Assembly: GCA_000827495.1 (NCBI GenBank)
Contig: KN817548.1
Coordinates: 77,301 to 141,300, forward strand
DNA from: Hypholoma sublateritium FD-334 SS-4
Lineage: Eukaryota; Basidiomycota; Agaricomycetes; Agaricales; Strophariaceae
Reading direction: 5' to 3'
Length of the DNA: 64,000 nucleotides
Shown here: positions 18,061 through 39,095 of the stretch, piece by piece
Numbering within the stretch: the stretch's first letter is position 1
How the letters are laid out: the number at the start of each line of letters is the position of its first letter
Translations under genes and position numbers: made by a program
Notes under the pieces: generated by a model
The model's database searches: none
The model's input: the letters and a program-made list of their open reading frames with translations, nothing else
What the model was told of the DNA's origin: nothing

Positions 18061-19433
18061 TCAAGAGGTATGATAGCTCCCATGCATGTAAAATTTATAG
18101 GCGTTAACTATTTTATCCTTCGTTTCGTAGACTTTATCCGCGATCCGCTGCGCGTAGACCTTATCTGGGTCCATTTCTTCCTGCGAGTAAATCGTGCCAG
18201 GCCCAGCATGCGATGCCAATGCATGGTCACTATGCCACGTCTGCACATGTTCTCCCTGGGGGATCTTGGGGAGTGGTTTCTGAAGTTCATTCGGAGACTT
18301 TCTCGGAGGTAGCATCGGGGGAGATCCCTGGGGGGCGCGGGGCTTCGCCAGTTTCCTTTTGTCCTCCTCTGCATTCGCCATCAACTGCTCCAATCTCTGA
18401 CGGTCTTTGACCAGCTCAGCCCTCAGATCTTCGTCGTTAGTAAATGCTGCCTCTTGCATCTCCTTCATCAGGTCTTCCATCTCCTCTCCGTGCTTCCTCT
18501 GAAGTGCCGTCATTTCTTCGATGATGACCGCACCCGCCGACGTATTTCCCAGCGCACTCCCGGCATACAGCTCCAGCTGGATTTTCATCGTCTTCGGCGT
18601 TTGATCAATGAGCGTGGACATGATGGAATGGGCCGACGCGAGTCCTTTATCGTGGCGGTACATCTGGGCTCCAGCATCGATGAGGGGCTTGAACACGCGA
18701 TTTGCCAACTCCGCTTGACGGGCACTGCCCTCTTTCTCGCTGACATTGTTCCAATTTGTGGTGACGAGTCGAACATTGCTGAGCATTTCGTCGCCGCAAA
18801 GTTCTCTGAATAGCCTAAGGTTCTTTTTGGCCGCGCCGCCTACTCGAGGGTCGGAGATGCGGTGTAGGTAGATTATGCCGTTGATGCTCCGTCCACCACT
18901 GTTAGAAATATCGTTTGAGATTGAACTGGCTTCTCACAAAATCAACGCAGTGCTCACTTTCCCTGCAAGAAATTGGCTATTTTTTGAAGGATATCAGTGT
19001 CGGTGATGTCGCTTCGGGAGTCGTCAAAACCAGGCGTATCAACAAGCGTCACGGAAAGTCCGGATGTGTCGTCGTGCCATAGAGAAGTACTGACATCGAT
19101 TGTCTGGGATTCGAGGTCGTGACCAACGCGAATATTGTCGTCCTTAGTCAGAAGGTTGATGAACTAGTTATACAAGAAAAGGTAAATATTTTCACCATGA
19201 AGCATTTCGAGTTGTACTCACCGTGGATTTTCCTAGAAACGTCAGGAAATACTTTGAGATCATTTATGGCTCAAGATTTGTTGAAGGAAAATTTACCTGT
19301 TCCAGTTGGGCCCATGAAACTGGCCGAAGTTAGCCATTGACACGTATGACATCGACTGAAAGTAGAAGACATACACAATCATCACTTCGCGGCCGCCAGC
19401 ACTGGGGTGTTGCATTGTCTCTCCGCTTTGCAT
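18061..19433 (-). CDS. GIMAP/AIG1-like P-loop GTPase, type A (A1)
   Basis: Five exons, 19433-19375, 19319-19297, 19232-19222, 19163-18958 and 18898-18061, give 378 residues. The third exon is only 11 nt and supplies Lys-Ser-Thr of the P-loop GPTGTGKST (residues 23-31). G3 is DTPGFDD. The place of the usual N/TKxD motif is taken by TTNWNNV, as in many fungal relatives. SDPRVGGAAKKNLR marks the family. Beyond the G domain (to about residue 200), residues 235-290 are strongly charged and heptad-like, a probable coiled coil, followed by a Pro-rich tail with a short hydrophobic end. The gene lies head-to-head with the GTPase-lipoxygenase gene B1. No signal peptide or membrane span is seen, so it is probably cytosolic. 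Biological role unknown. Confidence 0.85.
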
Positions 19434-20326: not shown

Positions 20327-23300
20327 ATGCATCCCTCTGTTAATCGACCTACCGGAATGTCCCCTGGTCACCAGGACGATATCGTGATAGCGTGAGCGCT
20401 TACTTTCACTTTTTTTGGTGTTATTGTTGCTCAATCTTGCGATCGAATGTTAGGATAATGGGCGCCACTGGCTCTGGCAAATCCTCCGTGAGTTGGGTAA
20501 TCCAAAATATTTACTAGGAGTCGGGACTAACTTTACGCATCTTTATCTGATATTCTTGTAGTTCGTCAACCTTCTCACAGGCAAGACTAGTGTCAGGATC
20601 GGTGGCAGCCTCGAGTCTGAAACTGCGAATGTCGACGCCATCCGATTCTTGGATGACACCATTGGTCGTGAAGTGACTGTTGTTGATACACCTGGATTCG
20701 ACGATTCGCGTCAAGGCATGACGGATACGGATATACTGAAAAAAATTGCAGATTTTTTACTCAACGAGTGAGGTTATCCTTAATGATCCCCTTATTGTCT
20801 TCTTGAGCTGACGGCAATCAATTAGGTACGACGCAGACCGAAAACTCAATGGTCTCGTGTACGTTCAGCGAATATCCGACCCCAGGTTCAGCGGCCAGCA
20901 GGGAAAGAATTTAAGGATGTTTCAAAGTCTATGTGGCACGCAAACGTACAAAAACGTTGTGGTTCTCACTACATTCTGGGACCAAGTCGAACCCGAAGTC
21001 GGGGCGAGGCGAGAGGCGCAATTGCAGTCCAATTTTTTCAAGGAAGTTATTCAAGGTGGCGCCCGGTTTATGCGACACAACCGCACCCCGAAATCCGCTG
21101 GCGCGTTGCTTAGCCACGTCTTCAACAATCTGGTTCCCGTGACTACTCAAATTCAAATCGAAATGGGAAAAGAGGGGAAATCTCTTGTCGACACCGCGGC
21201 CGGAGGGGTACAACAGGAAGAGATCGAGCGCGTCGTCGCCAAGCACAAGAAAGAAATGGCAGATCTCAAAGCAGAGTTGGAAGCGATCAAGCAGAGCAAC
21301 ACTGCGGCAAGACGAGAGCTAGAGGAGGAGCGCTCTAAGCTGCGGCAACAATTAGCACGATGGGAAAGCGAGAAAGCGGAGCTAAAGGAAGGCCTCGATA
21401 AGGAGAGGGGCGCTCGGCAGAAACTGGAAGCGGATATTGCAACGGAGCGAGAGAACCACAAGAAATGGCGTCAAGAACAAGAGCTCAAATTCGATGCTCG
21501 AAGCAACACAATCAATAAGGCGCCTCAAAAAACGGCTGCCATTCAACCAACTGTCAGAGGCCTTGGTGTTGGCTACAGTGAGTGGGAACAAATCACCGTA
21601 CCTTCAATTCGTGACACATCCTGTAGCGGAAAACATTGACCTCAAATTAATATATATTGGGAACCCCAACGCATACCAGTTCGCGCAGTCGGAACAGTAC
21701 CCACCGTATCTGAAGTCCATCCCGCGGAAGGACAGAATGTCTATCTTCGACATCTTCAATTTCTCTGCCCTCACAGAGACGGCTGCGACGTTGCTTTTCG
21801 GGTCGCCTACATCGCCAAGTATGCAGAGCGTGTACCAGATCGTAGCTCGGAACAGGGAACTTCACACGAAATCGCGGGAAAGCGCCCGCAATGGTCGCCC
21901 TGACTTTAAGCCAGACATGCATTTCAACAAAAATATTGGTCTTCGCGACGACTGGTACACGGACGCCGCATTTGGTCAGCAGCAATTCACTGGAACCAAT
22001 GCCACAACTATCACTCTCGCGCCTCAGCGTTGGATTGAAGAGTTCAAGACAGTCTCAAATGTCCAGCAACGTGCCGATGTTGCGAGCCTCTTAACCGACC
22101 ATCCTGGAAGCATCTTCATTCAGGATTACAGTGATTTCCGCTCTGCGATGGGTGTCTCTCCCAGTTATGAATTCACGTCAGATGGACGATATGGCTGTTC
22201 TTCTGTCGTACTCTTCCATCTCGAACCGGAAGGGAAGTTGCATCCCTTGGCCATCACACTTGATTATAAAGGCAGTATGAAAGAATCTGTGGCCATTTTC
22301 AATCGTCGTATCTCATCTACGATACCTGGAGACGAGGCAGAGGACTGGCCCTGGCGGTACGCAAAAATGTGCGCCCAATGCTCCGACTGGCTTCGTCACG
22401 AGGTGGCCATCCACCTTGTCAATACACACCTCGTCGAGGAGGTCATCATCGTTTCTGTGAACCGCGCATTTGACCCTTCCCATATAGTGTTCAGACTTCT
22501 GGAGCCACATTGGAGTACGACTCTTCCGCTGAATGCAGCCGCCCGTGAAACTCTTGTGCCCAAAATCATCATCCCGCTGACTGGCTTTACTCCAAAGCAA
22601 ACTTACGCCTTTCTTAAGGACTCGTACAGCAAATTTGAGTGGACTGCTTTATATATTCCGAACGACCTGAATAGACGTGGCTTTCCAATCGAGGACTTGG
22701 ACAAGCACAAATACCATAATTATGGCTATGCCCGCAATATCTCTCGTATGTGGAATATCTTGCGGAGGTTTGTTCAGACAGTGCTTGAAGATGCCTACCC
22801 CGGCGGTGATGCACAGGTAGCCAGTGACCGGTCTGTATTTGCATTTTACCAGGACGTTCGCTCGAGCAGTGGTGGCCAGCTTTCCAGCTTCCCTGACGTC
22901 AAGACTTTGGACGAATTAATCGACTTCGTCACCATGTGCATACATATCGCATCGCCGCAACACACCGCCGTTAACTACCTGCAGCAATACTACCAAACCT
23001 TCATTCCCAACAGGCCATCTGCTCTTTTCAGTCGACTTCCACAATCTCTGGCAGCCCTTCAGAAGTTTACCGAAGACGACGTGTTATCGGCACTTCCTAT
23101 CCGTCGACCACGGGAGTGGTGGATTATGGCCCACGTGCCGTACCTCTTGTCATTTGAAATGCCGCAGGATAGCACTATTCTCCACTACGCCACGACGGCG
23201 TCGAATTCACGCTCAAACCCGTCGGCCATTCGCAAAGCAGCTGGAGCTTTGAGGAACGATCTTGACGTTTTCAGCCGGGACGTGTATCGGTATAGTTTGG

Positions 23301-23371
23301 AACTCGATGATCAGCAAACACCTTACGAGGTGCTGGACCCCGGCAGGACTGCGATATCAATCCTAATTTGA
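20327..23371 (+). CDS. Predicted GTPase - coiled coil - lipoxygenase fusion (B1-LOX1)
   Basis: Five exons (20327-20391, 20454-20487, 20562-20767, 20826-21577, 21627-23371) total 2802 nt, 933 residues, every phase consistent. Residues 25-33 are the P-loop GATGSGKSS, DTPGFDD is G3, and TTFWDQV sits at the G4 position. Residues 230-330 form a Lys/Glu-rich coiled coil. A 49-nt GTGAGT..GTAG intron then joins the frame to a full lipoxygenase catalytic domain (about 353-933): GLRDDWYTDAAFGQQQFTGT, LRHEVAIHLVNTHLVEE with metal-ligand His615 and His620, ASPQHTAVNYLQ with His798 and Asn802, and a C-terminal ISILI ending in the expected Ile ligand. Lipoxygenases add O2 to polyunsaturated fatty acids to make oxylipin hydroperoxides. 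Read without splicing, the first part ends at 21639 and the lipoxygenase lacks a sensible start. Expression data would settle the junction. Confidence 0.85.
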
Positions 23372-24600
23372 TGGTAGATTTCTTCTCTCTTTAGATTTCT
23401 TTTGTTACATCTGAATGTCTTGCTACCTTGAAATTTTTGTCTTTTGCTTTAGTAATTAGTCATGGACATTGGGTATCAACGGTATCGTTGTTGCAAATGG
23501 TGATTTTCCTTATCTGGTTGCCTTTCTAAGTTTCACATCACTCGTCCCAGCACGTTTTCCCTACCTTGTATCAACATTATTATCTTGCCCATCGGATGCA
23601 GCAGCTTCAATGTAACTGTCAGCCTGGGAGAAATACATCGCATCAAATGGCATATTGCCTGGGCCACCAGCATCGTGGGACCGTAGAAATGAAGATCGCC
23701 TTTGAAATTCTCTGGAGAGTTGGCTTCGAAGATACAACAGCAAGTCGGCTAGACCCACACCATTTCGGACTTACGCAGACGGCAAATCCTGTCAATGTGA
23801 CCTCGAAAGATTTCACCGCTGTTCCGATGAGCTGAATATGATATCTCACACTGGCAGCAGTCCTAAATTCCAAGCATCCTGTCAGATATGACGATACTGA
23901 TAGAATTCCATCTGAAATAAAATACACGAGTGGGCGGATAATATACAGTAAACCAAGAAATCGTCAAACATAAATAGCATACGTGGGATGCACTGATGAT
24001 CACAGAGAGAACCCCGAATCTGAGATAAGTAGTAGGTAGGCGCTCGTCCCGCAAAGCCACCGAACGTTGTTCTACTTCCATATATTTGTGAGACCGGTGG
24101 TTTTCTGCTCTATTTTTTGTGCACACCGTTGATGGTTTTCGACGGAGAACGCATTGAGACGCACTGCCAATCGGACATTTATTTAGCCCCGCAGCTGAAG
24201 CGCTGAAGGCTTGGAAGTTGGAAACATAAATCCACACATATGCAAGTGCACTTTTTTGGAGCGATTCCGGGCTCTGTAAACCTTGTACATAACCGGGAAT
24301 GTGACGATGGGAAGCTAGATAGCTTGATGGACGGAGAACCCACAGTGGTCTGCGTCATGATTACTAACGAGAAATCACCGGCAAAATCTGGAAAAATAGT
24401 TATCTACTTTCTTAGTGTTAAAACGTTAAATAGTTGTCCAGATGGGCGCCGTTTATATTTTCACTGTGAAAAGTTTCGGTCGTGGATAAAATTACTTTAG
24501 GGTACTGCTTTTTAATGTTCTAGTTAGGGATAAATGTTGAGTTGGATATTTTAATACAATACCTGCGTGTCTCAAGTATCACTGCTTTATGTACAAAAGT
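23372..24600. other. Intergenic downstream of B1-LOX1
   Basis: AT-rich 3' flank. Open frames up to 124 codons (minus, 24237-23863) show no motif or splice partner. I see no supported gene. Confidence 0.35.
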
Positions 24601-27530
24601 TTGTTACTTCAAGTAATAAAAAAAAATACCAAGCGACCTGAAATCAACTGAAAGATGCTACTTGAACAGTAAAAACATAGTACCCCCAACAGCATAAGAT
24701 ACTACCCCCAACAGCATAGGATACTACCTTCAATAGCATAAGATACTACCCATCAGGATAAAGTGCTACCCAAGCCACAGAAGATGCTACCGGAAACAGC
24801 ATGAAATGCTACTGAAAGTAGCGTGAAATGCTGCAAAATGCAACAAAATATGTTTCTAAAGGACACCAAAAGGTAACATTTTCTGCTGCTAAAAGGTACG
24901 CATTACCTCTACCCACAACGTAGTCGATTGCGATNCCCAAGAGGTAATTAAATGCGCTACCTAGGAAGTAAACAAGTCTATATGCCTTTGGAGGTTTGCA
25001 ATACAACGGTTTTCTAATACTCGGAATACAACATGACTGATATTAGTATTATTCGAACTGCTATTACAATCTGGCACTAACGACTGCGTACACAACAAAC
25101 GCTACCGTCCAAGANGTCGTATCTAGCGTCCCGATGGTGAGTCACTTGCAGTTCTGTTCCAGTATACTCTGCCGGCCACGACGTAGCCAGACGACCAGAC
25201 TCCGCGCCGCCTCGTGTGTTGATCCCTGCCTTCTGTTCAAATTCACTCGGCGAGTCCGACGTACTCCTCGTGCATCGAGGAGCGCACGAGCTGCTGCCGA
25301 ACGACGGGGAACAGCCAAGCGANGCAAATAACNAGACACTCAGATAGAGACCTGCATAAGTTGTGAGCAGAACAATTCCTCGAGCAAAGATCGCGGAGGC
25401 CAATAGCGTGGCCACAGCACCAGAGAACCTGTCAGAGACTCAGAGGTAAGCCAANGACGTTCTTCGACATACAGTCTACGCATCCTTGACTCCTGATTCT
25501 CGTCGTTTCTACCCAGGTACTCGCCCAATCGACTTCGTCGCAGACGGCGCTGAAAACAAGGTGAGCAGCCCACACAATGATATATACGCCGTACACACCT
25601 GACAGCTGTGCTCTAGCCCACGTACGCCGCCTCCCTCGTCGCCCTCTCTGTATGCGCCCCACATGCGCTGCGTATCAGGCCCGCGGCTGTCATTGTCGTC
25701 GTCGTCCACTGATAAGCCATGCNAGNGCAAGGCGGCTCGTGGGTGTTCGCGTCGGTCTTCTCGGGGCGCACTGACTCCCGAGGTGCGCGTGCTGCAGAAA
25801 AGTAGCCAAATTCTCGTCGTCCAGCTTCTACGTGAGACATTAGCACATGCTGTGCAAAGAAGTAACAAAGGATCCTGGTGAGCAACAGCGGATTCAAACA
25901 ACTGACGCAGAGTCAAAGTTGATTAAAATTACTGAAGCTCTCCAATGAANGACGCGCAGTCAAGTTGGTCGGAGCAGTGGACGACGCAAAGTCAAGCCCT
26001 TGGATCTTACTGTGCAGCCAGTTGGTCCGTAATCGAGGACGATNAAGACATTACAGAGCGTAAGAGGAGAGGGGAAGAGGGACGCAAGGGGAAGAGGGAC
26101 GCAAGGACGGAGGGATGCGGAAGGAAGGAAGGAAGGACGGAGAGATGCGGAGGGACGCGCGTCGCGCTCTCGGAAACCGTGAGAAATAGGTCATGTGATT
26201 CCAAAGTCGTCAACCCAAGTCCATTCGCTAAGGCGCTTGTCCTTCAAGCTCGCTTTGAGCTCGCTTCTACCAGTATTCTTGATATGCAATGTCCCTTTTG
26301 TCACTTTGGTAAGTGTAACTTCCGTATGCCCCAACTACAGCTACAGCGGGCAGTGCCCATAATTCATCAGAGGAGTGCCACGGCCCACAAGTCCACCCCT
26401 CCTTTTCGCTATCCTTTTCTGTCACCAGCACAGCGTCGCCAATATCCATGAGCGGCACAAACGGTTTCAGCGGGAGTGCCACCCCGTGGGTGTGCAACAT
26501 ATGCTCATCCACCTCTCGCTATCCATCGAGGGAGCNGATACATCATACAGTAACATACTGACACCGACGTCTTTGGAGGATGACAGCGGGGAGTGTGAGC
26601 GTCCCAACTCCCACTTGTGCTCGCGCGTGGGCCTGGTGGTGCGGTATTCAATGCTAGGTCAAGTGGGAGATGGTTGAAGAGCGCGGCGTCGATGGAGAGC
26701 ATGAGTGGCGGGATTGTTGGCTGGTCCGGCAACGACGTGATGATGATAAGGGAATTGTGCATATCTTCCTAATAGCAGGTGCAATTGGGGTCGAGAGTAC
26801 ATATCTATACTACGCTGGAACTCGTATGCATGATTTGTGAATACACATAAGTATCATTCTAATGTTTGAGCTCGTGCAAATTGTTTTGGGGCTGCGGACG
26901 AGAGTTCGCCTACCAGCCACCACTACATAGCTACTTTTCTCTCGCTATCTTTTATTACCTTTAGAAGGCGTTGATTTTTAATGTCTCCAAAGGACTATTA
27001 TATATTGTTTTGCGGGGGACTTCAATATTATTACCTTGCGAGCTCGGAGTTTTATCACTTTTTCGAGTGCGTATTTTTGACGCCCAAGGGCAATAAATTT
27101 CATGACTTTTCAGGAGCAAGATTCACTACCTTGGACGGGTATCAATCTTTCTTACCTGCAGATATCATTATATACTACTTTATCCAGGTAATTTTTACAA
27201 TTAATTCTGGTCGTGATATTTGTTGTCATTTTTGGTATTATAAAAAATTACTTCAAAGGTAATATTAATCCGCGCTACGGAAAGTAGCATAATCTATTGT
27301 ACGATAAAATATGCTACCTTTGTCAAAATATTACTACCTAAGCAGTAATATCTACTACCCTTTCTTTTCACAGTGCTGGTGGAATACCCCGCCTTGCCCA
27401 AGTGCTGCTCGAATTCGAGTCCTTAAATATTCCAGATTATCTCCCACTACGGCGCTATCTCATCAATATGACGTAGGCACGTCGCTGGAAAATATTGAAA
27501 CGGCCACGAGCGCATCTGTCGGAAGTATAT
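24600..27530. repeat. Repeat-rich block with ambiguous bases, probably remains of a mobile element
   Basis: At 24670-24840 about seven degenerate copies of a 20-22-bp unit occur, with the core CAGCATAAGATACTACC. Related ATGCTACCTTT/TACTACC words return at 27275-27365, and AGGTAA/TTACCT words are scattered at both margins (24870-24970 and 26950-27260). The core 25.0-26.6 kb is GC-richer and carries ten N bases. No frame in it encodes a recognisable protein. Subterminal short repeats flanking a unique core are what a non-autonomous DNA transposon would show, but I cannot define inverted ends or a target duplication. Confidence 0.45.
26050..26165 (+). repeat. Purine-rich low-complexity tract
   Basis: About 115 bases consist largely of GGAAG, GGACG and GAGGGACGCAAGG words in loose tandem. 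The strand is almost pyrimidine-free and could form triplex or slipped structures. No coding meaning is apparent. Confidence 0.55.
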
Positions 27531-28118
27531 GAAGCAGGCGTGATGGGGCGGGAAAGAGCATTAAGTACCTCGCCAGCTTCAAGTTAACTTGAAGCGCCCG
27601 CACTTACTTAAATCAAACGCAAAATCAAACGCCAGCGCCGCCGGCCGGCATGTCACCGAGAGCCGTACCTCTTGACAAATCCACGAAGTCTCAGTACTAC
27701 ACCTGCCGCTAATAGGACTTGCGTGTGGGACGGCGAACAATATATAAGCCAGGTGACACCCCCTCGATACAAGCTATGTTGGCAGTTGCCAGTTGTTGCA
27801 GGAATTTGGGTCTTCGGCGGCGGCGCCACCGCGGCGGGCGTGCGTGGGAAATTCAATCAACAACAAACTCCCTGAGCGCGACGGCACACTTGCGACACGC
27901 CGGTGTTTCTTAAAGTTCAACGCCAACGCCAAAGTCGACGGTAATCTGTAGTATCAGCTGATTCAGCTCTAAAAATCAGATATCGTGACTCAGGCTTCCA
28001 GCCACCGCGATGAGCGCGTACTTGGGCGAAACTCCTAGCACTTTTTGGCGGAAATTGACAAGGGAAAGAGAGCAAAAAGAGAGGGTATGTGGTGCATTGA
28101 GTGTAAACTAACAACGGA
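27531..28118. other. Intergenic between the repeat block and GTPase A2
   Basis: A 588-bp stretch with short frames in several directions and a purine-rich run at 28057-28085. Nothing supports a gene. Confidence 0.35.
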
Positions 28119-29435
28119 CTAATTGGCATGCTTTGAAACTGAAGGACTCAAACTACTATCTGTGGAATGTTTACTTGATTTTCGGGATCTGCCAAAATTG
28201 AAACGAAAAAATCGCTTGATGCCAATCGTATCAATACGCTTGCGGTGCCCCTTCGCGTCGTGTGAGGGAATAGAACTTGGTTGAATTGCGGAAGGTGTTC
28301 CCGGAGATACCTTGAAAGGCGTCTGTGGAAGTGTTTCCGTAGGCAGTCCCTGGGGTGCGTATGCCAAAGTCGTCAATCGTTGTTGGTCCTGCTCTGCACG
28401 CGCCATTGACTCCTCTAATTTCTGACGTTCTTCAGCTAGTTCAGCTCTCAGGTCCTCATCGTTAGCCATTGTTGCGTCTTGCAACTCTTTCAACAAGTCT
28501 TGCATCTCCTCGTCATGCTTCTTCTTCAACTCTTTCATTTCTTCGATAATAACCGCACCGGCTGACGTATCGCCCAGCGGGATCCCAGCATCCAGCTCAC
28601 CCTGGATTTTCATCGCTGTCGGCTCTTGGTGGACGAGGGTAGACATAATTGATTGGGCCGATATGGGTCCCTTATCATGGCGAACCATTTTAGCTCCGGC
28701 GTCGATAAGGGGCTTGAAGATTCGACTGGCCAACTCTGCTTCACGAGAATTGCCTTCTTTGTCGCTGACGTTGTCCCAGTTCGTGGTGACTAGTCGAACA
28801 TTCCGGAGCATGTCTTCACCGCAAAGCTCCCTGAATAACCTAAGGTTCTTTTTGGCTGCGCCGCCTACTCGAGGGTCGGAGATGCGATGCAGGTAGATAA
28901 TACCGTTTATATTTCGTCCACCGCTGATGAGATTCCCGGTCGAGATTGAACTGACAATTCTGAAAATTTAGTGCACTCACTTTTCCTGCAAGAAATCGGC
29001 TATTTTTTGGAGGATATCAGTGTCGGTAATATCACTTCGGGAATCGTCAAAACCAGGCGTGTCGACCAGCGTCACGGAGAGGCCAGACTTTTCGTCGTGC
29101 CACACGGATGTGCTGATGTTGGTTGTCTGGGACTCTAGGTCGTGGCCAACACGAATATTGTCGTCCTTAGTAAGTAGATTGATGAACTGCACGAGGAAGG
29201 TAGGTGTCTTTCAGCGTCGAGAGTTCTACGTTGTACTCACGGTCGATTTCCCTAGAAATGTCGGAGAATGACTTCGAGATCACTTATGGCTCGATGGTTC
29301 TCTAGTTGAAACATACCTGTCCCAGTTGGGCCCATAAGCCTGGATTCAGTTAGCCGTAACATATTGGGACAAGTCAGAGCAGAAGACATACGCAATTGTC
29401 ACTTCGCGACTGTGAGTCATATTTTTGTTTTGCAT
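28119..29435 (-). CDS. GIMAP/AIG1-like GTPase, type A (A2)
   Basis: Five exons, 29435-29392, 29339-29317, 29251-29241, 29186-28981 and 28923-28119, give 362 residues. The exon lengths 23, 11 and 206 nt are identical to those of A1 and A3, and the 11-nt exon again holds the P-loop Lys-Ser-Thr. G3 is DTPGFDD and the G4 position reads TTNWDNV. The coiled-coil region (about residues 215-275) is followed by a tail unlike that of A1: a Pro/Ser stretch, then a basic-aromatic segment (KRFFRFNFGRSRKSSK) and a Ser-rich end. The basic patch could bind membrane lipids, which is inference. It is divergent from B2-LOX2. Confidence 0.85.
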
Positions 29436-30024
29436 TGTCTCGCTCTTTGATATGCAACGAAAAAGCAATCCAAGTAATGGCTGGATGTGACGTTCAAGAA
29501 CCCACTTTAATGCAAGCGTTGCGCTTCTCCTAGTCCCTTACTAGCCGAAATGCCGCAACCCCCGAACCCCGCGGTTTCTCACTCGGCAGCTGTTTCCAGC
29601 GCAATTTGGCCTCATGTCATCCTCACTCCGCCTGCGAAAAATCTTCGGATGAAAGATTCGACGGCGAAGTTTCGAACATCAGCGATAGACGCCCAGATCC
29701 TTGTCAGATACGTGTTTGGCAGTCATGAGGTTCATGTAAGCTCGCACACTACCTCCCTCCGTGATGATTATCTTCTCATCTGACAGCGACAGGAAGAACG
29801 ATGTGAACGCTGGGTATGACATATGGTAGATATGTTCATACTTATGTATTGGCGGTGGCATATGGTCTCCCGAAACACGGGGACGTGCTCAAGACCATTC
29901 CTTGACCTAATTTAGACTTGGAAGCTCACAGAGGTCCAGTGCTCCAAGATTGTGACTGGAAATTCAACAGGCGGTGTACTCTAAACGCTTTCCTCGGTCT
30001 GCAGACACAATTGTGCATCTCGCT
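29436..30024. promoter_or_regulatory. Shared divergent upstream region of A2 and B2
   Basis: The 589-bp gap is the counterpart of 19434-20326. It carries the same conserved minus-strand block (29656-29698), here extended by further open codons to about 29861. The two gaps are otherwise poorly alignable by eye, so the promoter parts have diverged faster than the block. Confidence 0.4.
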
Positions 30025-33000
30025 ATGTCCTCGTCCCTAAAGTCCACCCAGATGCCTCCCTCCCTCAAGCCACCTAACGGATCGGTCGCCAGTCATCAGG
30101 ACGACTTTGTCATAGCGTAAATGCCTTCACCTTTTATCATCGCCCATCATTGCTCAACTATCTCACGAATGGTAGTGTGATGGGTGCCACCGGGTCAGGC
30201 AAATCTTCCGTGAGTTGAGAAATCCTGAAAACCAGTGTTAATGAGACTGACTTTACGAATATCTCCCTCGGTCACAGTTCATCAACCTTCTTACAGGGAA
30301 AACCAGTGTCGCGATTGGAGACAGTCTCGAGTCGGAGACTGCCGACGTCGCAGACATTCGTTTTATCGACAGCGCCACTGGTCGTAAAGTGACCATTGTC
30401 GATACACCTGGGTTCGATGATTCGCGCCAAGGTGTTACCGACACAGATATTTTGAAAAAGATCGCCAATTTTTTGCTCGCGGAGTGAGTTGACTTCGGGT
30501 CTGCTGTCCTTTACATCCTGAGCTGACTTGCTTTTTAAGATATGACGCTGACCGAAAGCTCAATTGCCTGCTGTACATCCAGCGAATATCGGACCCCAGG
30601 TTCAGCGGTCAGCAGGGCAAGAATCTGCGAATGTTCCAAAATCTCTGCGGGACGCAAATGTACAAGAACGTTGTGGTTATGACCACCTTCTGGGATCAAG
30701 TTAGCCCGGAAGTCGGGGCGAAGCGAGAGGCACAGTTGCAGTCGAATTTTTTCAAGGATCTTGCGCAAGGAGGCGCCCTGTTTATGCGACACGACCGTAC
30801 CCCAGAATCCGCCGCCAAGCTCCTCAATCATGTCTTCGCCAAGCTGGCCCCCGTCACCGCTCAAATTCAGATAGAGATGGGTAAAGAAAAAAAGTCTCTC
30901 GTCGACACCGCGGCTGGGTCTGTACAGCAGCAAGAGATTGAACGCGTCATCGCCAAGCACAAGGAGGAGATCACAGATCTCAAAGCCGAGATGGAGACGA
31001 TAACGCAGAGCAACATCGCAGCACGAAGAGAACTAGAGGAGGAACGCGCTAAGCTGAGGCAACAATTGGCCCGGTGGGAGAGCGAGAAAGCAGCGTTACA
31101 GAAAGGGCTGGATGCAGAAAGCCGCGCACGCCAGAAGCTGGAGGCGGATGCTGCGATGGAGAGAGAAACCCATGAGAAATGGCGTCAAGAGCAAGAGCGC
31201 AAGTTAGAAGAAGCTCAAGCGAAGGCTCGTGCCGCAGCCGAAGAGAACATAAACACTCGGCGCAATCAGCTGGACCGGACACGTAGCACAGAGGTAGACT
31301 CCAGGCAGCGAAACTCATCACCTGCGTTGGGAGGTTTTAGTGAGTCCGATTATATCAATGCACCCCAGATCAGCTCGTGACACACCTCGTACCAGTGAAA
31401 GGCCTAATCCGGGACGGCAGGAGGCTAGCATACAAATTTGCACATTCGGACAAGTACCCACCTCATCTGAAGTCGATCCCTTGGAAGAATCGTGCCAGTG
31501 TTTTTGATATTTTCGATTTTTCTGCTCTTGCAGAGACGGCCGCAGCCTTACTTCTCCCACTGAATTTACTGCCACAAATTCGGAATATGGTACCCAACTC
31601 CAATGGCGGTCGCCTCACCATGAGCCAAATCGTAGCTCACAACCAGGAACTTCACAACAAATCGCGGGAAGGCGCTCGCGCTGGTAGTTCCGGTTACAAA
31701 CCAGACATGTATCTCAACAAGAATGTTGGTCTTCGCGATGACTGGTACACGGACGCTGTTTACGGGCAGCAGCAGTTCACCGGGACCAATCCAACCATCA
31801 TCGCTCTCGCACCTCCCCGTTGGATCGAGGAGTTCAAGACAGTCTCAAATGTCCAGCAACGTCCCGATGTTGCGAGCCTATTGACCGACAGCCCCGCAAG
31901 CATCTTCATTCAGGATTACAGTTACTTCCGCTCTGCAATGGGCGTCTCTCCCAGTTACGAATTCGCATCAGACGGACTATATGGCTGTTCTTCTGTCGTA
32001 CTCTTCCATCTCGAACCAGAGGGGAAGTTGCATCCCTTGGCCATCACACTTGATTATAAAGGCAGTATGAAAGAATCTGTGACCATTTTCAATCGTCGTA
32101 TCTCAACTACGATACCTGGAGACGAGGCAGACGACTGGCCCTGGCGGTACGCAAAAATGTGTGCTCAATCCTCTGACTGGCTTCGTCACGAGGTTGTCAC
32201 CCACCTTGTCCACACACACCTTGTTGAAGAGGTCATCATTGTCGCCGCACATCGCACTGTCGAAGCCGATCACATAGTCTTCCAACTTCTGGAACCACAT
32301 TGGAGCACTACTCTTTCGCTCAACGCTGGGGCTCGGGAGACCCTCGTGCCCAAAATCATTGTTCCGTTAACTGGCTTCACTCCGAAGCAAATGTTTGCCT
32401 TTCTAAAGGACGCGTACAATAGGTTTGATTGGACGGGTTCCTACGTCCCAAACGACCTGCGTAAGCGCGGTTTCCCAATCGAGGACTTAGATAAGCGCAA
32501 GTGCCATAATTATGGTTATGCCCGCAATATCTCTCGCATGTGGGATATTCTCCGAAAATTTGTGCGGACAGTTCTCGAAGATGCCTACCCCGGTGGCGAT
32601 GAACAGGTGGTCAATGACGAGTCCCTTGCATCCCTCTTCGAGGAGGTTCGCTCGCGTAATGGAGGCCAGCTATCCAGCTTTCCCGTCATCAAGACTTTGG
32701 ATGGGTTGATCGATTTCATCACCATGTGCATACATATTGCATCGCCGCAGCACACTGCTATCAACTACCTGCAGCAATACTACCAGACATTCATTCCCAA
32801 CAAACCATCGGCTCTGTTCAATCGCCTTCCCCAGTCATTGATTGAACTGCAGAAGTTTGGTGAAGACGACGTGCTATCAGCACTTCCCATCCTTCGACCA
32901 CGGGAATGGTGGATCATGGCCCACGTCCCGTACTTGCTATCTTTCGAAATGCCGGAGGATAACACTATCCTCCACTACGCTACGACAGTGTCAAATTCCA

Positions 33001-33134
33001 CTTCGGCGCCGCTAGCCATTTGTAGGGCAGCTAGGACTTTAAGGACAGACCTCGACGCCTTCAGCCTAGATGTCTCACGATACAGTCTGGAACTCGATGA
33101 TCAGCAAACGCCTTACGACGTTCTCCATCCCTAG
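30025..33134 (+). CDS. GTPase - coiled coil - lipoxygenase fusion (B2-LOX2), 3' end cut by a transposon
   Basis: Five exons (30025-30116, 30176-30209, 30278-30483, 30540-31339, 31396-33134) give 956 residues in one frame, with exon lengths 34 and 206 as in B1. P-loop GATGSGKSS, DTPGFDD and TTFWDQV are present. The coiled coil is longer than in B1. The GTGAGT donor at 31340 lies at the same place as in B1, and the intron is 56 nt. The lipoxygenase domain has HLVHTHLVEE and ASPQHTAINYLQ, so the histidine and asparagine metal ligands are kept. The frame stops at TAG 33132-33134, which is the first three bases of the inserted element. The last nine codons of the original gene lie beyond it at 39066-39092. 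Without them the C-terminal carboxylate ligand is missing, so activity is doubtful. An ATG at 30052 is an alternative start. Confidence 0.8.
33123..33131 (+). repeat. Target-site duplication, left copy (CTCCATCCC)
   Basis: Nine bases directly before the element equal 39057-39065 directly after it. Joining the flanks through one copy restores an uninterrupted lipoxygenase 3' end that matches the paralogue. Confidence 0.85.
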
Positions 33135-33310
33135 CCTCGTGACCGGCCCTCCGAAAGAGGATGCGGCATTCGCGAGAATCCTCGTAGAGGGGCCGGTCCG
33201 TCTGACTTTGAATCACTGATAAATTCCTTACGATCGAAACTCGCACAAATGGGGTTCTCGGCGTTCTCGAGTCGCTACCCTTTTAGGAAATTATCGACGC
33301 GTCAACGCGC
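33132..33310 (+). repeat. Left terminal inverted repeat of the element
   Basis: 179 bp match the inverse of 38878-39056, most strongly over the inner 110 bp. The outer part contains nested inverted repeats: CCGGCCCTC 33143-33151 with GAGGGGCCGG 33187-33196, and inside it GAGGAT 33157-33162 with ATCCTC 33178-33183. The helicase start codon is only 63 bp further in, so the repeat probably carries its promoter. Confidence 0.85.
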
Positions 33311-33372
33311 TTTGCGCGCGCGCGCTGCTTATTTATAGATTCCCTCCTTACCGCTACCCTCCGCCATGTAAT

Positions 33373-35590
33373 ATGGCTGAGAACAATGAATACATTGTTC
33401 CGAATCTTGCTGAGCGTCTGCAGTACCTCAGGAAATGCCCCGCCGCGGACATTACAGAACTCTCAAGTGCAATACCGGGCTTCGCAGCCCAGTTACCTCA
33501 AGATTACCTCATGGAACTCAAATCCGCCGAGCGGATCATTTGCCTTCGTGCCGCTATTGTATGTCGGAGTGTCACACAGGGCATCCAAGTCCCAAGAAAA
33601 ATGCAGCTTCAGGCAATTCTGGCAGCACAGCTCGGTCATGACAGTCTGGTGTCGGCTGGCACTGGGAGTGGGAAGACACTCCCAATTGCTGTGAACATTC
33701 TCATGGACGACCCAGCCGACAAAAAAATTACAATAACTGTCAGTCCCCTCAAGCGACTTCAGGCCACCCAACAGGCCGATTTCAATGAGCGCTATGGAAT
33801 CAGAACATTTGTAATAAATGAAGACACACCTCGAGATGAAGGATGGTGGATGGTCTGCTTTACTTCCCTGGCCGTGAAAAAATGCGCATATACTGATTTA
33901 TTATTAGTCTAACATTTACTCGAGTACGAAAACCATCAAGAACCCCGCACAGCACCTGATTGTGACCGTCGAGCAATTATTTAAGACTGCCGAAGGTCAT
34001 TTCTCTCGAATTGCAGATCTGGTCCGAACTCCGGCATTTCAAGGACTTATTTCACGGATCAATATAGATGAAGCTCATAGCTTTTACACCTCAGGCCTTT
34101 CCCTCTACAACTGCCCTGCCTTTCGACCTGCCTGGGGGAAGCTGTCTGACCTGAAGCGTATTCTTCGGCAAACAACTCCGTGGCACTTGTTCTCGGCTAC
34201 GTTCCCCCCACACATCCTTGCTGCTGTCAAAGAAAAGCTAATGCGGCCTACATTTGACTATATTCACCAGACCTCAAATCGCCCTAATATCATCTATGCA
34301 ACACATGAAATCGACAAGCTCGAGAACCTTCAAAATTACAGCTGTTTCGTTACATCTCCATATAATTCCGTGGCGCAGCCACACATCCTAATCTTTGTTG
34401 ATGACAGGAATCTTACCGCTAAGATTGCTGATCATCTCGACAGCTGCCTTCCCCCGGAGCTTCAGGGAAAGGGAGTTATCAAGAATTATCACTCCTCAAT
34501 GTCCCAGCTCTATCTTGACCGAACACACAGTGATTTTGTGTCGCCAACTGGTACCTGCAAAATCTTGGTCACTACTTCTGGACAGTCTGTTGTGAGTGGT
34601 ACATAATTTAGTGAAAGTATTGCTGATATTTACTGCATCCGATTGCCGGACATAGGGAGTCGACTTTCCGAATGTCAAAATTGTCTGCACAGTGGGATTA
34701 CCAGCATCCATTGTTGACGCGCTCCAGCGTGGGGGCCGAGCAATACGAATAGGTGATGAAGATGCCCTGTTTGTGGTTTTCCATGAGCCATGGGCTCGTG
34801 AAATCACTGAGGACGAATTCGAGGAAGGGATGGACCCTGATAGACCACGCGCAGACTTGGGTGCAAATGCACGACGTCAAGAGCGAGCACCATTATCAGC
34901 AATACGACTGGTTCAGTGTCGTACATGTGTACGTCAATACTACGCAGGTTATCTAAATGATCAAACAGAATCTGGTGAGTAACGTTTTATTCTAGAGAGC
35001 TATCAATGACCGATCATGTCATAGCTACATTGTACACAGGGCCATTTTGCTGCGATAGACACGACGACGGCTTTGATCTGCAGGATTTTCTACCTGGATC
35101 ACTCTACCAGAAGGACCTCGCAGTAGCCAAGACCAGTGCGGTGGTTTCAAGAGCTATTATTCGTCTCAAGAGCGAGAGGGTGGAGCTCGAGAAACTTCTT
35201 ATCAAATGGCTCAATGCTAAGGTTGCAGCTGAAGAATATTCACGGCCCTCATACGAGATTCTGTCAGCCGATAAAATGCGAGACCTCCTTCGTATTCCAT
35301 CAAAGGACGCCGTTTCCCCAAGTGCCATTGCTACATCTCTTGGCGAGAACCAGGAGTGGCAGGATGCGTATGCTGGTGAATTATTTCACCTCATCTTTGA
35401 GTTTGACATGGAAATCAAAACCGTCAAGGCCGCAAAGGAGCTATCAAAACGGGGAAGACCTGCACGGGCAGGTCAGCCCCAGGCTTCTGTAACTGGTGAC
35501 GGTTTCATTAATCAGACTTCAGAGTCTTATGGAAACATAGAGAGCAGTGGGACTAACAATAAACGGCGTCGAGTGTCAGAATATAAGTAG
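33373..35590 (+). CDS. RecQ-like DNA helicase encoded by the transposon
   Basis: Four exons, 33373-33852, 33908-34591, 34656-34974 and 35025-35590, give 682 residues. Helicase motifs in order: SAGTGSGKTLPI (motif I, near residue 95), INIDEAHSFYTSG (DEAH box), FSATFPP (motif III), ILVTTSGQSV with VDFPNVK, and ALQRGGRAIRIG (motif VI). A Cys/His group follows (QCRTCVRQYYAGY and GPFCCDRHDD), placed like the zinc-binding subdomain of RecQ. The C-terminus is basic (NKRRRVSEYK), a likely nuclear signal. It probably unwinds DNA during excision or replication of the element. The first intron has a GTCTGC donor, the weakest of the model. Introns are otherwise canonical and phases agree. Confidence 0.88.
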
Positions 35591-38500
35591 CTACTCTTCA
35601 ATTGTAATATCATCGTCTACCTCTTCCGCCCGATCCAGGAAATCAGCCTGTGGTAGCTCGTCCGCCTCACCAGTCTCTGTATCAATATTATTGCCATTCT
35701 TGCATGTGTCGATCTTTTTGTTGAATGCGGCCAGCGAGGTTGATTCAAATTTACCATACCCTAGTTTACGGAGATCCGGAGTGGGCCTTGATTGCGTCTC
35801 GCGGTTTTTGACGTACTCTTGAAGTTGAAAGGCTTTTGCGTGGTTAGCTACCCTCATCACGAGTACACTTGTGTCAGGCGTCTTGTGTGATGTTCCTTGG
35901 TACCCAGATGCAAGGCTATGTGCGACGCGTTTCTTGATCAATTGTAAATACTTCACTGCTGCGGAAATATCTCCCAGTCGATCCCAGCTGCTATACAGGC
36001 CCTTGGCAGCGAACAGGGCCTACAGAAGCTATAGTTAATTTATGTGTACAATGGACAATAGAACGCACCTTTAGATAGCCAATCAAATGCTCAATATTGA
36101 GGTCAATTGGCATATGGTGCCCCGAAAGCCCAGACGGATTGACGAGCATGATGTTTCGCATAATATCCCTAGAATATAAGCAAAATTCAATATGGTGAAT
36201 ACAAAGTGAGCGACAGTACTCACGCAAATTCTGGTGTCCACACTTCCTTGATGTTATGGAGAAGGTGAAGTATCTCCATCGAATAATTGTTAGAGCCACC
36301 GCCGCGAAACACACAAGCAATTTGTGGGAGAATATCCTCCACGCGGCCAAAATCACCTGATGAAACTGCATTGATTAGTTCAACAGCATAGAGCAGATCG
36401 CGTGTGAGGAGAACAGTGTTCGAGTGAGTGTGATCTGTAGTGTTGTCGTCTACCGCCGGATCCAATTCTGCATTACCCGCTGCCTGGCCCTTGCGCTTCC
36501 TGGGTGCTGTTGTCTCAACCGTTGGTGGGGTATCTATGGGAACACTGTATGCCTTCCGAATCTTGTCAGCAGTGCGCAGAATATCGGCAGGGGTGGGATT
36601 CTTAGCGGCATATTCCTCGAGGGAGTCGACACCACACTCTGTCCGCCAGGCATTAACAATAAGCCCATCAATAATCTGCGTGAGTGCGGCAAGCAAGGTG
36701 TAATAGTCCGGTTTGTCGGATCCAAGTCGCGCCTTTTCAAGGATGCCGAAATAGCTAGCCAAGGACCCATGCTCAGTGATAGTGCCACGATGTTTTTGAA
36801 GGATTAGCCAGATGTAGTTCATGATGAGATGAAAGATCCCAAAGCCAAGTTGGAAAACCTCGCGACGCTCCCAGGCATTCACGTCCTTGGCACGCAAAGC
36901 TTGCGCACCACGTATACGTGCATTTGTGAGCTGGTCGTTGAGGGTGGGAATTGCGTACTCGCCAAGGGTCTCGGGGTCATGGCCAAGCTGTTCAATATAG
37001 ACGTTGTCGTGTACTTGAAGGTTTCCAGTGACGCTTGCTTCCTCAATTGTTGCAACTGCGATAGGATAGAACTGAGTCTTGCGGCCCTTGGGAAGCTGGG
37101 AGCGACAGAGATGCTGTAAGGAGGGGTGATCGATAAGCTTCTTAAATTCCACGACGGTGCAGTGCTTGAGAAGAATGTGTACGATGTTTATATTGGTCTG
37201 ATGTTCATATGATTTCTGAGCCGTTCGGCTGCTTCGTAGATCACTCATCGTCAAGGGCTTTGATTTCTTGAAGTTTTCAATAATCGGCGCAAGCTTGAGA
37301 TGGAACGGATCGACATTGTCCAGCTGGTAGATTACAGGGAATGTACCGGACTGCATCTTGCTCATGGCACCTGGGCGCTGTTCGATGTGTATGGATGTCG
37401 AAATGTTGATATTGTCGTAACAAAAAGCATGGGGCCCACAGGAAACTTTCGCAGCCTGTTCAACGGAGTATTTGTGGAGCGCAAGAATTGTGTTTGCGAC
37501 AGTACTGTACGCAGTTGATATTCCAGCCTTGTGAAGAACATTTATCAGGTTCTTTCTTGCCCCAGTGGACCAAGCCATTAGACCGAGACCAATCTGAACT
37601 TTGGATGAATGAAATGAGCGCCTGTAGTGTACTTGCGCACTGATAATATTCCGTGTCTACGCTATATAGTCAGCTTGAGTACGTAGATAAGAATAGAAAA
37701 TGTTCTCACTGTATGTCGAACTTGAGAATTCTTGTTATTCTCGCGCGCAGCCTTCGCCGCGCAGACCTTTGATTCTGTCGCAGCAGAAAGAATAGTGGAC
37801 CAAGTTGGTGTCGTGTTCTCCGAAATTGGGTCCATAATCTTGTTAATATCCCAGGACTCGATGAATTCTGGCGTCGTTTCCGCAGTGGTCATATGAAGGA
37901 ATGGTTTTGCAGCCTCCATTTCGGTGTGGATTGTCTCGCAGACCAGCGTCACTGCATGGGGAAGCATCCACTCGTTTAAGGTTTCGGCTCCCTGCCTATC
38001 AGCCATAATCAGGTCGAGGATTTGAACAAGAGCGCCCTTGTTTTTTGGGCGGAAAATATTTCGTCGGGTATTGCTGAGTGCGTTGTCATTGTTGTCAGCC
38101 TCAAGAACACCAATCAGAAGTGACAGAGGACTTAATCCTGCCTCGGAAAGGGTGTCTGTAGCGCGCAGTAATGTGTCGGCCTTTGAAAGGCGCTTGTTGC
38201 GCATCCTCGCTACAAATACTGGTGGTTCCGTGTGCCAATCTGTCTGAAGGTCGTCGAATTGCAGCGGCACACCACCAAAAAATTGTGTGGGTGACTCTGG
38301 CTCTGCACCAGGTCGATTGGGTCCCATCCAGGTGCTACCAGAGCCATAGTAACCGGAGTCGACATCCATTGCACCCGGCGCCACGCTGGGATTGATCGGA
38401 AAAGGCGCCGAGAACAGAAGATTAGCGCCCATTGGTCTGCTATCACATGTAATCAGACAAATCGTTCATCAGATATATCAAACGCACCCTTTAGTGGCAA

Positions 38501-38810
38501 AAAGATCATCATCGAGATGCTCGGCTGAACTCGGAGAGGCCGGAGCAAGAGCAATATCAAGATCTGCAGTCTCTGTGATGGTCATCGAAGGTGTTTGCGG
38601 TGTCATCAGGCCATGATGATGGTTCGATGTCCCCTCTGGTATGGTATTTGCCTCAGACAGTGGCTTTATGGTATTTTTCTTTCGTCTTGAGTGAAAAGTA
38701 TCCGCTGAACTTCCGGGCATAAAAAAAGCTGGCCGGGTGCTATAGCCATTTGGGTTTTGATTTTCTTGAGGTATCTGAGCATTTACTCGGAATTTATCGG
38801 CTCGCGGCAT
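35591..38810 (-). CDS. DUF6589 protein, candidate transposase
   Basis: Five exons, 38810-38488, 38439-37710, 37656-36224, 36168-36069 and 36019-35591, give 1004 residues with consistent phases. The N-terminal 110 residues are disordered. Residues 350-410 carry the family signature LGLMAWSTGARKN followed by LHKAGISTAYSTV. Then come CYDNINISTS (Asp about 432), GAMSKMQSGT, PTLNDQLTNARIRG (Asp about 592), GFGIFHLIMNYIW (His about 627) and the late DLNIEHLIGYLK. The spaced acidic residues YDN and NDQLT suggest an RNase-H-like nuclease core, but the third acidic residue is not certain. The C-terminus is acidic. Because it is the only other gene inside the inverted repeats, it is the best candidate for the enzyme that recognises and cuts the ends. 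Confidence 0.9.
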
Positions 38811-38877
38811 GTTGTAATAGTTTACTAGCAGGGAATACAGGAGGGGAAGCTATCTACAGGGCACGTACGCGTGCGCG

Positions 38878-39056
38878 CGCGTCGACGCGTCGATAATTTC
38901 CTAAAAGGGTAGCGACTCGAGAACGCCGAGAACCCCATTTGTGCGTGTCTCGATCGTAAGGAATTCATCAGTGAAATGAAATCAGTCGCACCAGGCCCTC
39001 TACGAGGATTCTCGCGAATGCCGCATCCTCTTTTGGAGGGGTCGGTCACCGGCCTA
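38878..39056 (-). repeat. Right terminal inverted repeat of the element
   Basis: Inverse of 33132-33310 with scattered substitutions and small indels. It keeps the nested palindrome around GAGGATGCGGCATTCGCGAG. The DUF6589 start codon lies 67 bp inside it. Confidence 0.85.
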
Positions 39057-39095
39057 CTCCATCCCAGGAAGACTGCGATATCAATTCTCATGTGA
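39057..39095 (+). pseudogene. Target-site copy and severed lipoxygenase C-terminus of B2-LOX2
   Basis: The target copy 39057-39065 is followed by nine codons and TGA (39093-39095) reading RKTAISILM. This matches the C-terminus GRTAISILI of B1-LOX1. The terminal residue is Met here, Ile in B1. It is the original end of the B2 gene, now 5.9 kb from the rest. Confidence 0.88.

What the first reader, a model, noticed from the sequence alone, without database searches (positions are those of the whole stretch)
20327..33134. GIMAP-like GTPase fused to a lipoxygenase, conserved in two paralogues
Seen: in B1 (20327-23371) and B2 (30025-33134) a GTGAGT donor at the end of the coiled-coil region and an AG acceptor 49 or 56 nt later put the GTPase and lipoxygenase reading frames exactly in phase (phase 1 at both loci). 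Neither lipoxygenase has its own plausible start or promoter-sized gap, and all exon lengths sum to one frame. Known: lipoxygenases make oxylipin signals in fungi, and GIMAP/AIG1-type GTPases act as nucleotide-controlled oligomerising switches in plant and animal immunity. Inference: a GTP-controlled oxylipin-producing enzyme, perhaps in defence or self/non-self signalling. I know of no described GTPase-lipoxygenase fusion.
Basis: partly seen in the sequence, partly recalled or inferred. Interest (0 to 1): 0.93.

Follow-up and report, generated by a model that had tools for sequence, protein, structure and literature searches.

The report
Mushroom GTPase-lipoxygenase fusion enzymes
Mushrooms of at least nine genera carry a gene predicted to join a GTP-binding switch protein to a fatty-acid-oxidising enzyme, which likely lets a GTP-driven assembly control where or when the fungus makes oxidised-lipid signals.

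Summary
B1 (20327-23371) and B2 (30025-33134) of Hypholoma sublateritium each encode, by gene model, one chain: septin/AIG1-like GTPase, coiled coil, lipoxygenase. It is a conserved family. Of 120 listed homologues, 24 match both the GTPase region (some only in part) and the lipoxygenase, in 14 named Agaricales species of 10 genera; P-loop-to-C-terminus versions occur in 12 species of 9 genera. All 15 such proteins examined keep the P-loop, DTPG and the HxxxxH and HxxxN ligand motifs; 14 keep the C-terminal Ile. The lipoxygenase halves fall in one clade, suggesting one joining event. The GTPase halves do not (AU p 9.8e-5): in several species they group with unfused GTPases of the same genome. 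In 9 of 16 species a fusion and an unfused GTPase appear to share a contig. My best mechanism, untested: tailed unfused GTPases and the fusions co-assemble and bring lipoxygenase to membrane lipid under GTP control. Defence is plausible but undemonstrated. In this strain a 5.9 kb transposon removes B2's last nine residues, including the C-terminal metal-ligand position. My searches found no paper describing the fusion, though public protein entries show it.

The parts
20327..21577 (+). B1 exons 1-4: septin/AIG1-like GTPase domain and coiled coil (introns 20392-20453, 20488-20561, 20768-20825)
   Evidence: Gene model; MMR_HSR1 E 6.2e-09 and AIG1 E 7.9e-09, both over cut-off; motifs GATGSGKSS, DTPG, TTFWD
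21578..21626 (+). B1 junction intron, 49 nt, GTGAGT...CTGTAG, phase 1
   Evidence: same junction residues in public entry P0001
21627..23371 (+). B1 exon 5: lipoxygenase catalytic domain ending AISILI
   Evidence: PF00305 E 2.7e-44; ligand motifs and C-terminus aligned to solved lipoxygenase 6ns2
30025..31339 (+). B2 exons 1-4: septin/AIG1-like GTPase domain and coiled coil
31340..31395 (+). B2 junction intron, 56 nt, GTGAGT...TACCAG, phase 1
   Evidence: same junction residues in public entry P0002
31396..33134 (+). B2 exon 5: lipoxygenase domain, cut short at ...DVLHP
   Evidence: PF00305 E 4.6e-46; the stop codon lies in the transposon end
33132..39056 (.). Inserted 5.9 kb DNA transposon (terminal inverted repeats 33147-33310 and 38877-39040, 91% complementary; DEAD-helicase ORF; DUF6589 ORF on the minus strand)
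   Evidence: ends and 9-bp target duplication CTCCATCCC at 33123-33131 and 39057-39065 read
39066..39095 (+). Displaced last codons of B2 (RKTAISILM, then stop), beyond the transposon
   Evidence: sequence, compared with the B1 end
18061..19433 (-). A1: unfused A-type GTPase, 378 aa, divergent to B1
   Evidence: gene model; tree placement
28119..29435 (-). A2: unfused A-type GTPase, 362 aa, divergent to B2
39595..41135 (-). B3: unfused B-type GTPase, 453 aa, with a hydrophobic-then-basic C-terminal tail and no lipoxygenase
42980..44313 (-). A3: unfused A-type GTPase, 369 aa

Best explanation
B1 and B2 are two copies of a conserved mushroom gene family whose predicted spliced product joins a septin/AIG1-like GTPase, a coiled coil and a lipoxygenase, and the GTPase part would likely assemble with its unfused sister GTPases on a membrane to concentrate or switch fatty-acid oxidation there. 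Shown: both domains, the conserved junction, fused lipoxygenases in one clade, retained active-site residues, and GTPase halves that in several species group with unfused GTPases of the same genome. Inferred step 1: GTP-bound G domains pair and build homo- and hetero-oligomers, as proposed for GIMAPs. Inferred step 2: unfused B-type GTPases hold a membrane or lipid surface through their hydrophobic-then-basic tails, and the fusions, which mostly lack that tail, join through the shared G domain and coiled coil. Inferred step 3: lipoxygenase is thereby brought to polyunsaturated lipid (probably linoleate) and makes hydroperoxides locally; GTP hydrolysis releases it. The GTPase module would take the place of the N-terminal PLAT (lipid-targeting) domain of plant and animal lipoxygenases. 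The biological use, a wound or defence oxylipin burst, is the least certain step.
Against: No transcript, protein, GTP-binding or enzyme data were seen. G4 is T[TA]FWD, so guanine specificity is not assured. The best PDB profile matches of the GTPase are Der/EngA and a septin, not GIMAPs. Grouping of GTPase halves by genome can also come from repeated duplication with loss of the lipoxygenase, without any contact between the proteins. It is not general: Lentinula, Marasmius and Collybiopsis fused and unfused GTPases stand in separate groups or are joined only by an unstarred branch, and the Hebeloma and M. maculata groupings are unstarred; the bootstrap had not settled. Linkage is not shown in 7 of 16 named species. 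The tail is not universal: Hypholoma P0151 lacks it. PPxY linkers hint at other regulation, such as ubiquitin-ligase docking. The only expression hint is negative for ordinary fruiting: C. aegerita LOX3 is 'barely expressed' (PMC8097960, passage), and that LOX3 is the fusion is my inference.
Confidence: 0.45

Rival explanations
1. The fusion is real, but the GTPase-coil part is only a scaffold or localisation tag (for instance to a septin-like structure), and lipoxygenase activity does not depend on nucleotide state.
For: The lipoxygenase domain is modelled with high confidence and the linker 318-353 is disordered, so no rigid coupling is visible. G4 lacks the K of [NT]KxD (consensus recalled). 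A septin is among the best PDB matches of the GTPase.
Against: GxTGxGKSS and DTPG are kept in 15 of 15 fusions examined, which suggests that nucleotide binding matters.
Confidence: 0.3
2. The GTPase-lipoxygenase cluster serves normal mushroom oxylipin or aroma (C8 volatile) production and development rather than defence.
For: Other agaric lipoxygenases are tied to fruiting-stage oxylipins: C. aegerita LOX4 and others (PMC8097960, passages).
Against: The fused clade is separate from the clade of standalone Hypholoma, Flammula and Pholiota lipoxygenases. If C. aegerita LOX3 is the fusion (inference), it is barely expressed in the fruiting series.
Confidence: 0.2
3. Two separate genes per locus: a GTPase and a lipoxygenase with its own start, wrongly joined.
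For: Many GT-AG pairs could join the frames (5 and 14); B1 has an upstream ATG in the lipoxygenase frame at 21494. I saw no transcripts.
Against: 24 of 120 listed homologues match both regions in one predicted protein; the first lipoxygenase-frame ATG of B2 is inside the conserved domain. Six metagenome proteins run from inside the GTPase region through the lipoxygenase, but I could not see their DNA or how they were predicted.
Confidence: 0.02
4. B1 and B2 are decaying relics with no remaining function.
For: B2 is truncated by a transposon.
Against: B1-B2 dN/dS is 0.154 overall and at most 0.26 in any part measured; B1 keeps all motifs tested and the C-terminal Ile.
Confidence: 0.05

Closest known systems
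Fusarium graminearum lipoxygenase (PDB 6ns2-6ns6) and Basidiomycota 13-lipoxygenases (C. aegerita LOX4, Pleurotus LOX)
   Same: Same catalytic domain, metal-ligand motifs and C-terminus as 6ns2. The tunnel residues W330 and V581 of C. aegerita Lox1 (primer table, PMC7933318) correspond to SDW and VP[YF]LLS in all 15 fusions examined.
   Different: They have no GTPase or coiled coil.
GIMAP/AIG1 and septin GTPases (GIMAP4/5/7, Toc34, septins)
   Same: G-domain similarity; members with and without a membrane anchor, as in GIMAPs (PMC8201404, passages).
   Different: Fungal G4 is T[TA]FWD; the fusions carry an enzyme where the tail would be.
Coral allene oxide synthase-lipoxygenase (PDB 3dy5)
   Same: A natural lipoxygenase fusion with an N-terminal partner (entry listed).
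   Different: The partner there is a second enzyme of the pathway (recalled), not a GTPase.
Agaricomycete kinase-GTPase fusions (P0142-P0145, P0147)
   Same: A related GTPase fused to another signalling enzyme (domain list for all five; four of them rescanned).
   Different: Kinase on the N-terminal side in the four rescanned; their GTPases form their own clade.

Membership tests
Lipoxygenase (PF00305) | Pfam model over curated cut-off | tested here: met
   152.2 and 158 bits against 23.6
Lipoxygenase (PF00305) | Metal ligands HxxxxH and HxxxN | tested here: met
   HExxxH and QHTA[VI]N in 15 of 15 proteins examined; B1 entry aligned to 6ns2
Lipoxygenase (PF00305) | C-terminal Ile carboxylate ligand (role recalled) | tested here: met
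   Met in 14 of 15, B1 included; not met in B2 of this strain, whose end is cut by a transposon
Lipoxygenase (PF00305) | Lipoxygenase fold | tested here: met
Lipoxygenase (PF00305) | Fatty-acid dioxygenase activity | not testable with these tools
   needs enzyme assay
Manganese lipoxygenase (database label) | Closest to solved Mn-lipoxygenases | tested here: not met
   5fno at 19% and 5fx8 at 17% identity, against 40% for 6ns2; the metal itself is not testable here
AIG1/GIMAP GTPase (PF04548) | AIG1 model over curated cut-off | tested here: met
   35.6 and 34.2 bits against 27; MMR_HSR1 scores 36.4 and 39.9
AIG1/GIMAP GTPase (PF04548) | G1 and G3 motifs | tested here: met
   GxTGxGKSS and DTPG in 15 of 15
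AIG1/GIMAP GTPase (PF04548) | G4 [NT]KxD (recalled) | tested here: not met
   T[TA]FWD in 15 of 15; hence filed as AIG1/septin-like, not as a GIMAP
AIG1/GIMAP GTPase (PF04548) | Nucleotide-dependent dimer or oligomer | not testable with these tools
   needs biochemistry
PLAT-type plant/animal lipoxygenase | N-terminal PLAT domain | tested here: not met
   no PLAT match at E 0.01 in either protein

The most novel reading that the evidence does not exclude
This is a GTP-gated lipoxygenase: an immune-like mushroom locus in which membrane-tailed GTPases and lipoxygenase-bearing GTPases co-polymerise on a danger cue and fire a local oxylipin burst, with the GTPase halves kept matched within genomes by gene conversion so that the partners can assemble.
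Probability: 0.3. Interest if true: 0.92.

Novelty: new variant of a known kind. Interest (0 to 1): 0.74.

Why it matters
Lipoxygenases start oxylipin signalling in plants, animals and fungi, and control by a covalently attached GTPase is not described in any paper that my searches returned. If the mechanism holds, it gives a genetically simple system, present in cultivated mushrooms such as shiitake and C. aegerita, for asking how fungi turn a cell-state switch into a lipid signal, and whether mushrooms have GIMAP-like clustered innate responses.

Tried and rejected
Rejected: two genes wrongly joined; relic genes; assembly artefact (two diverged copies and many species); GIMAP membership proper (G4 differs); the 'manganese lipoxygenase' label. 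The intron phase argument alone was found weak.

Led nowhere: the first AlphaFold run with 17 sequences gave mean pLDDT 58.7. The first GTPase tree (68 rows) had long branches and was rebuilt without 9 rows (5 kinase fusions, P0146, P0127, P0129, P0141). Of the ten literature searches, seven were aimed at the fusion or at fungal relatives of its GTPase and showed no report of it; some searches served other points. I saw only the listings, except passages of PMC6584016, PMC8097960, PMC7933318, PMC3482391 and PMC8201404. The library is open-licence PubMed Central only. In the three C. aegerita papers 'GTP' occurs 0 times in the main text.

Shared contigs are inferred from equal contig lengths. 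The lipoxygenase tree is a quick tree with SH-aLRT only, and its outgroup was not one side of a branch. 'Fused' there means 24 rows with a GTPase match plus P0024 and P0028 (coil only). Eleven metagenome rows without a visible GTPase were included: 6 nest in the fused clade, 2 are its sisters, 3 lie outside. P0039 (G. dilepis, entry begins in the coil) was labelled standalone but nests inside. As labelled, 'fused' therefore needs 7 changes, or 2 when the metagenome rows are not counted. Only part of the 148 proteins then held was used in each tree. PPxY counts include B1 and B2 twice (as P0001 and P0002), so 15 of 29 rows is 15 of 27 distinct; P0039 is counted on both sides. The tail count (22 of 141) is a regular-expression count; one hit (P0216) is not at the end.

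Full report
What is there. The window belongs to Hypholoma sublateritium: database protein P0001 of strain FD-334 SS-4 is 100% identical to B1 over the 86% of B1 that it covers, and the window lies in a 46.1 Mb, 281-contig assembly. B1 and B2 were rebuilt from the DNA with five exons each and intron phases 2/0/2/1 in both. Pfam finds lipoxygenase PF00305 at E 2.7e-44 and 4.6e-46, and the GTPase models MMR_HSR1 and AIG1 over their cut-offs. Between B1 and B2, dN/dS is 0.117 in the GTPase, 0.150 in the coil and 0.162 in the lipoxygenase part, with dS about 1, so all parts look under purifying selection. The junction intron itself is not strong evidence, since several other in-frame GT-AG introns are possible (5 and 14 in all).

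The architecture is a family. In the list of 120 homologues (of 168), 24 match both the GTPase region and the lipoxygenase, some with only part of the GTPase. The named species are Hypholoma sublateritium, Amanita phalloides, Mycena maculata, M. galericulata, Hebeloma cylindrosporum, Marasmius tenuissimus, Marasmius sp. AFHP31, Lentinula edodes, L. aciculospora, L. detonsa, Collybiopsis confluens, Cyclocybe aegerita, Gymnopus androsaceus and Gymnopilus junonius: 14 species, 10 genera. For Marasmius sp. AFHP31 and G. junonius the entries hold only part of the GTPase, which leaves 12 species of 9 genera with a protein that runs from P-loop to C-terminus. Entries of Dendrothele bispora and Gymnopilus dilepis begin within the coil. 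Fourteen database proteins align from P-loop to C-terminus; the Cyclocybe entry lacks a piece inside the GTPase. With the B1 model, 15 of 15 keep GxTGxGKSS, DTPG, T[TA]FWD, HExxxH and QHTA[VI]N; 14 of 15 end in Ile.

History. In a 63-row quick tree of lipoxygenases all 26 rows labelled fused fall in one clade of 33 rows (SH-aLRT 99), together with 6 metagenome rows without a visible GTPase and P0039, whose entry begins in the coil. The standalone Hypholoma lipoxygenases on contigs C109 and C1 lie outside. No match to this GTPase was listed on C109, C1 or C49, the contigs of the other Hypholoma lipoxygenase matches. The GTPases tell a different story. In a 59-row careful tree the fused GTPases are not one clade (AU p 9.8e-5, log-likelihood 226 lower if held together; at least 8 changes forced by starred branches; bootstrap not settled). 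Starred groupings put Hypholoma fusions with Hypholoma B3 and the C112 copies, A. phalloides with A. phalloides, M. galericulata with M. galericulata, and Gymnopus with Gymnopus; Cyclocybe groups with Cyclocybe and Agrocybe. The M. maculata and Hebeloma groupings are weaker. Lentinula fused and unfused copies are separate clades, the two Marasmius copies stand apart, and the Collybiopsis ones are joined only weakly. So the lipoxygenase was likely joined once, and GTPase halves have since been exchanged, converted or re-duplicated within at least some genomes. B1 and B2 show a locally raised identity (92-96% at 22181-22420, against 82-88% in the two windows before and 70-81% in the four after), consistent with conversion.

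The locus. The window holds three unfused A-type GTPases (A1-A3) and one unfused B-type (B3) beside the two fusions. A. phalloides has two fusions plus seven listed unfused GTPases on contigs of one length, two of the seven being A-type in the tree. The same window or equal contig length puts a fusion (in Dendrothele a coil-lipoxygenase entry) and an unfused GTPase together in 9 of 16 named species: Hypholoma, Amanita, M. maculata, Hebeloma, M. tenuissimus, L. aciculospora, Cyclocybe, Gymnopus, Dendrothele. Unfused B-type GTPases often end in a segment of the form IPLVPNFLAKPxLGxLGxGLD followed by basic residues (22 of 141 proteins match the pattern used, one of them not at its end). Of the 120 lipoxygenase-list proteins only metagenome proteins P0021 and P0025 match it, just before the lipoxygenase. 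A PPxY motif stands before the lipoxygenase in 15 of 29 fused or coil-bearing rows (27 distinct), against 1 of 26 unfused GTPases (anywhere) and 2 of 94 lipoxygenase-only proteins, one of which is P0039.

How it likely works. GIMAP2 is described as able to dimerise with GIMAP7, with dimer-dependent hydrolysis and possible membrane scaffolds, some members anchored and some not (PMC8201404, passages). By analogy I propose that tailed unfused GTPases hold a membrane or lipid surface and that fusions co-assemble with them in a GTP-dependent way, bringing the lipoxygenase to its lipid. No PLAT domain was found in the fusions, so the GTPase would take that role. Apart from the cited statements, every step of this paragraph is inference. 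A defence role is plausible and no more; C. aegerita LOX3, which I infer to be the fusion because it stands apart in the published tree (PMC6584016, passage), is barely expressed in the fruiting series (PMC8097960, passage).

B2 in this strain. Its reading frame ends at a TAG that belongs to a 5.9 kb transposon (33132-39056) with a 9-bp target duplication CTCCATCCC; the displaced C-terminal codons lie beyond it. B2 thus lacks the C-terminal ligand position and is likely catalytically impaired, while its GTPase part is intact.

Novelty. Seven literature searches aimed at the fusion or at fungal relatives of its GTPase found no paper that describes it (listings only). Public entries show the architecture under names such as 'lipoxygenase' or 'Manganese lipoxygenase'; the latter label is not supported by similarity.

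Noticed in passing
window 33132-39056: Transposon with terminal inverted repeats (164 nt aligned), a DEAD-helicase ORF and a DUF6589 ORF, inserted in the last codons of B2; pieces of its end sequence also occur on contigs C81, C51, C220 and C21.
   Followed up: partly
P0142-P0145, P0147 (Suillus, Tephrocybe, Leucogyrophana, Hygrophoropsis, Flammula): Related GTPases fused to protein kinases in Agaricomycetes, and proteins with more than one GTPase match (P0121-P0123): the GTPase module is combined with several partners.
   Followed up: partly
linker before the lipoxygenase in 15 of 27 distinct fused or coil-bearing proteins: PPxY motif, often PPPPYE, a possible WW-domain or ubiquitin-ligase docking site (role recalled); absent from B1 and B2.
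   Followed up: partly
window 22181-22420 against the matching part of B2: Local identity of 92-96% against 70-81% in the four 120-column windows after it, a conversion-like tract within the lipoxygenase.
   Followed up: partly
L008 (contig C49): A lipoxygenase fragment whose frame is interrupted (one TGA; split over two frames), probably a relic of a standalone gene.
   Followed up: no
A1-A3, P-loop: A-type GTPases carry an extra intron that splits the P-loop codons; the exon after it is only 11 nt.
   Followed up: no
public entry P0001 (HYPSUDRAFT_644226): The database model of B1 starts within exon 4 and so lacks the P-loop; only the lipoxygenase domain is listed for it.
   Followed up: yes
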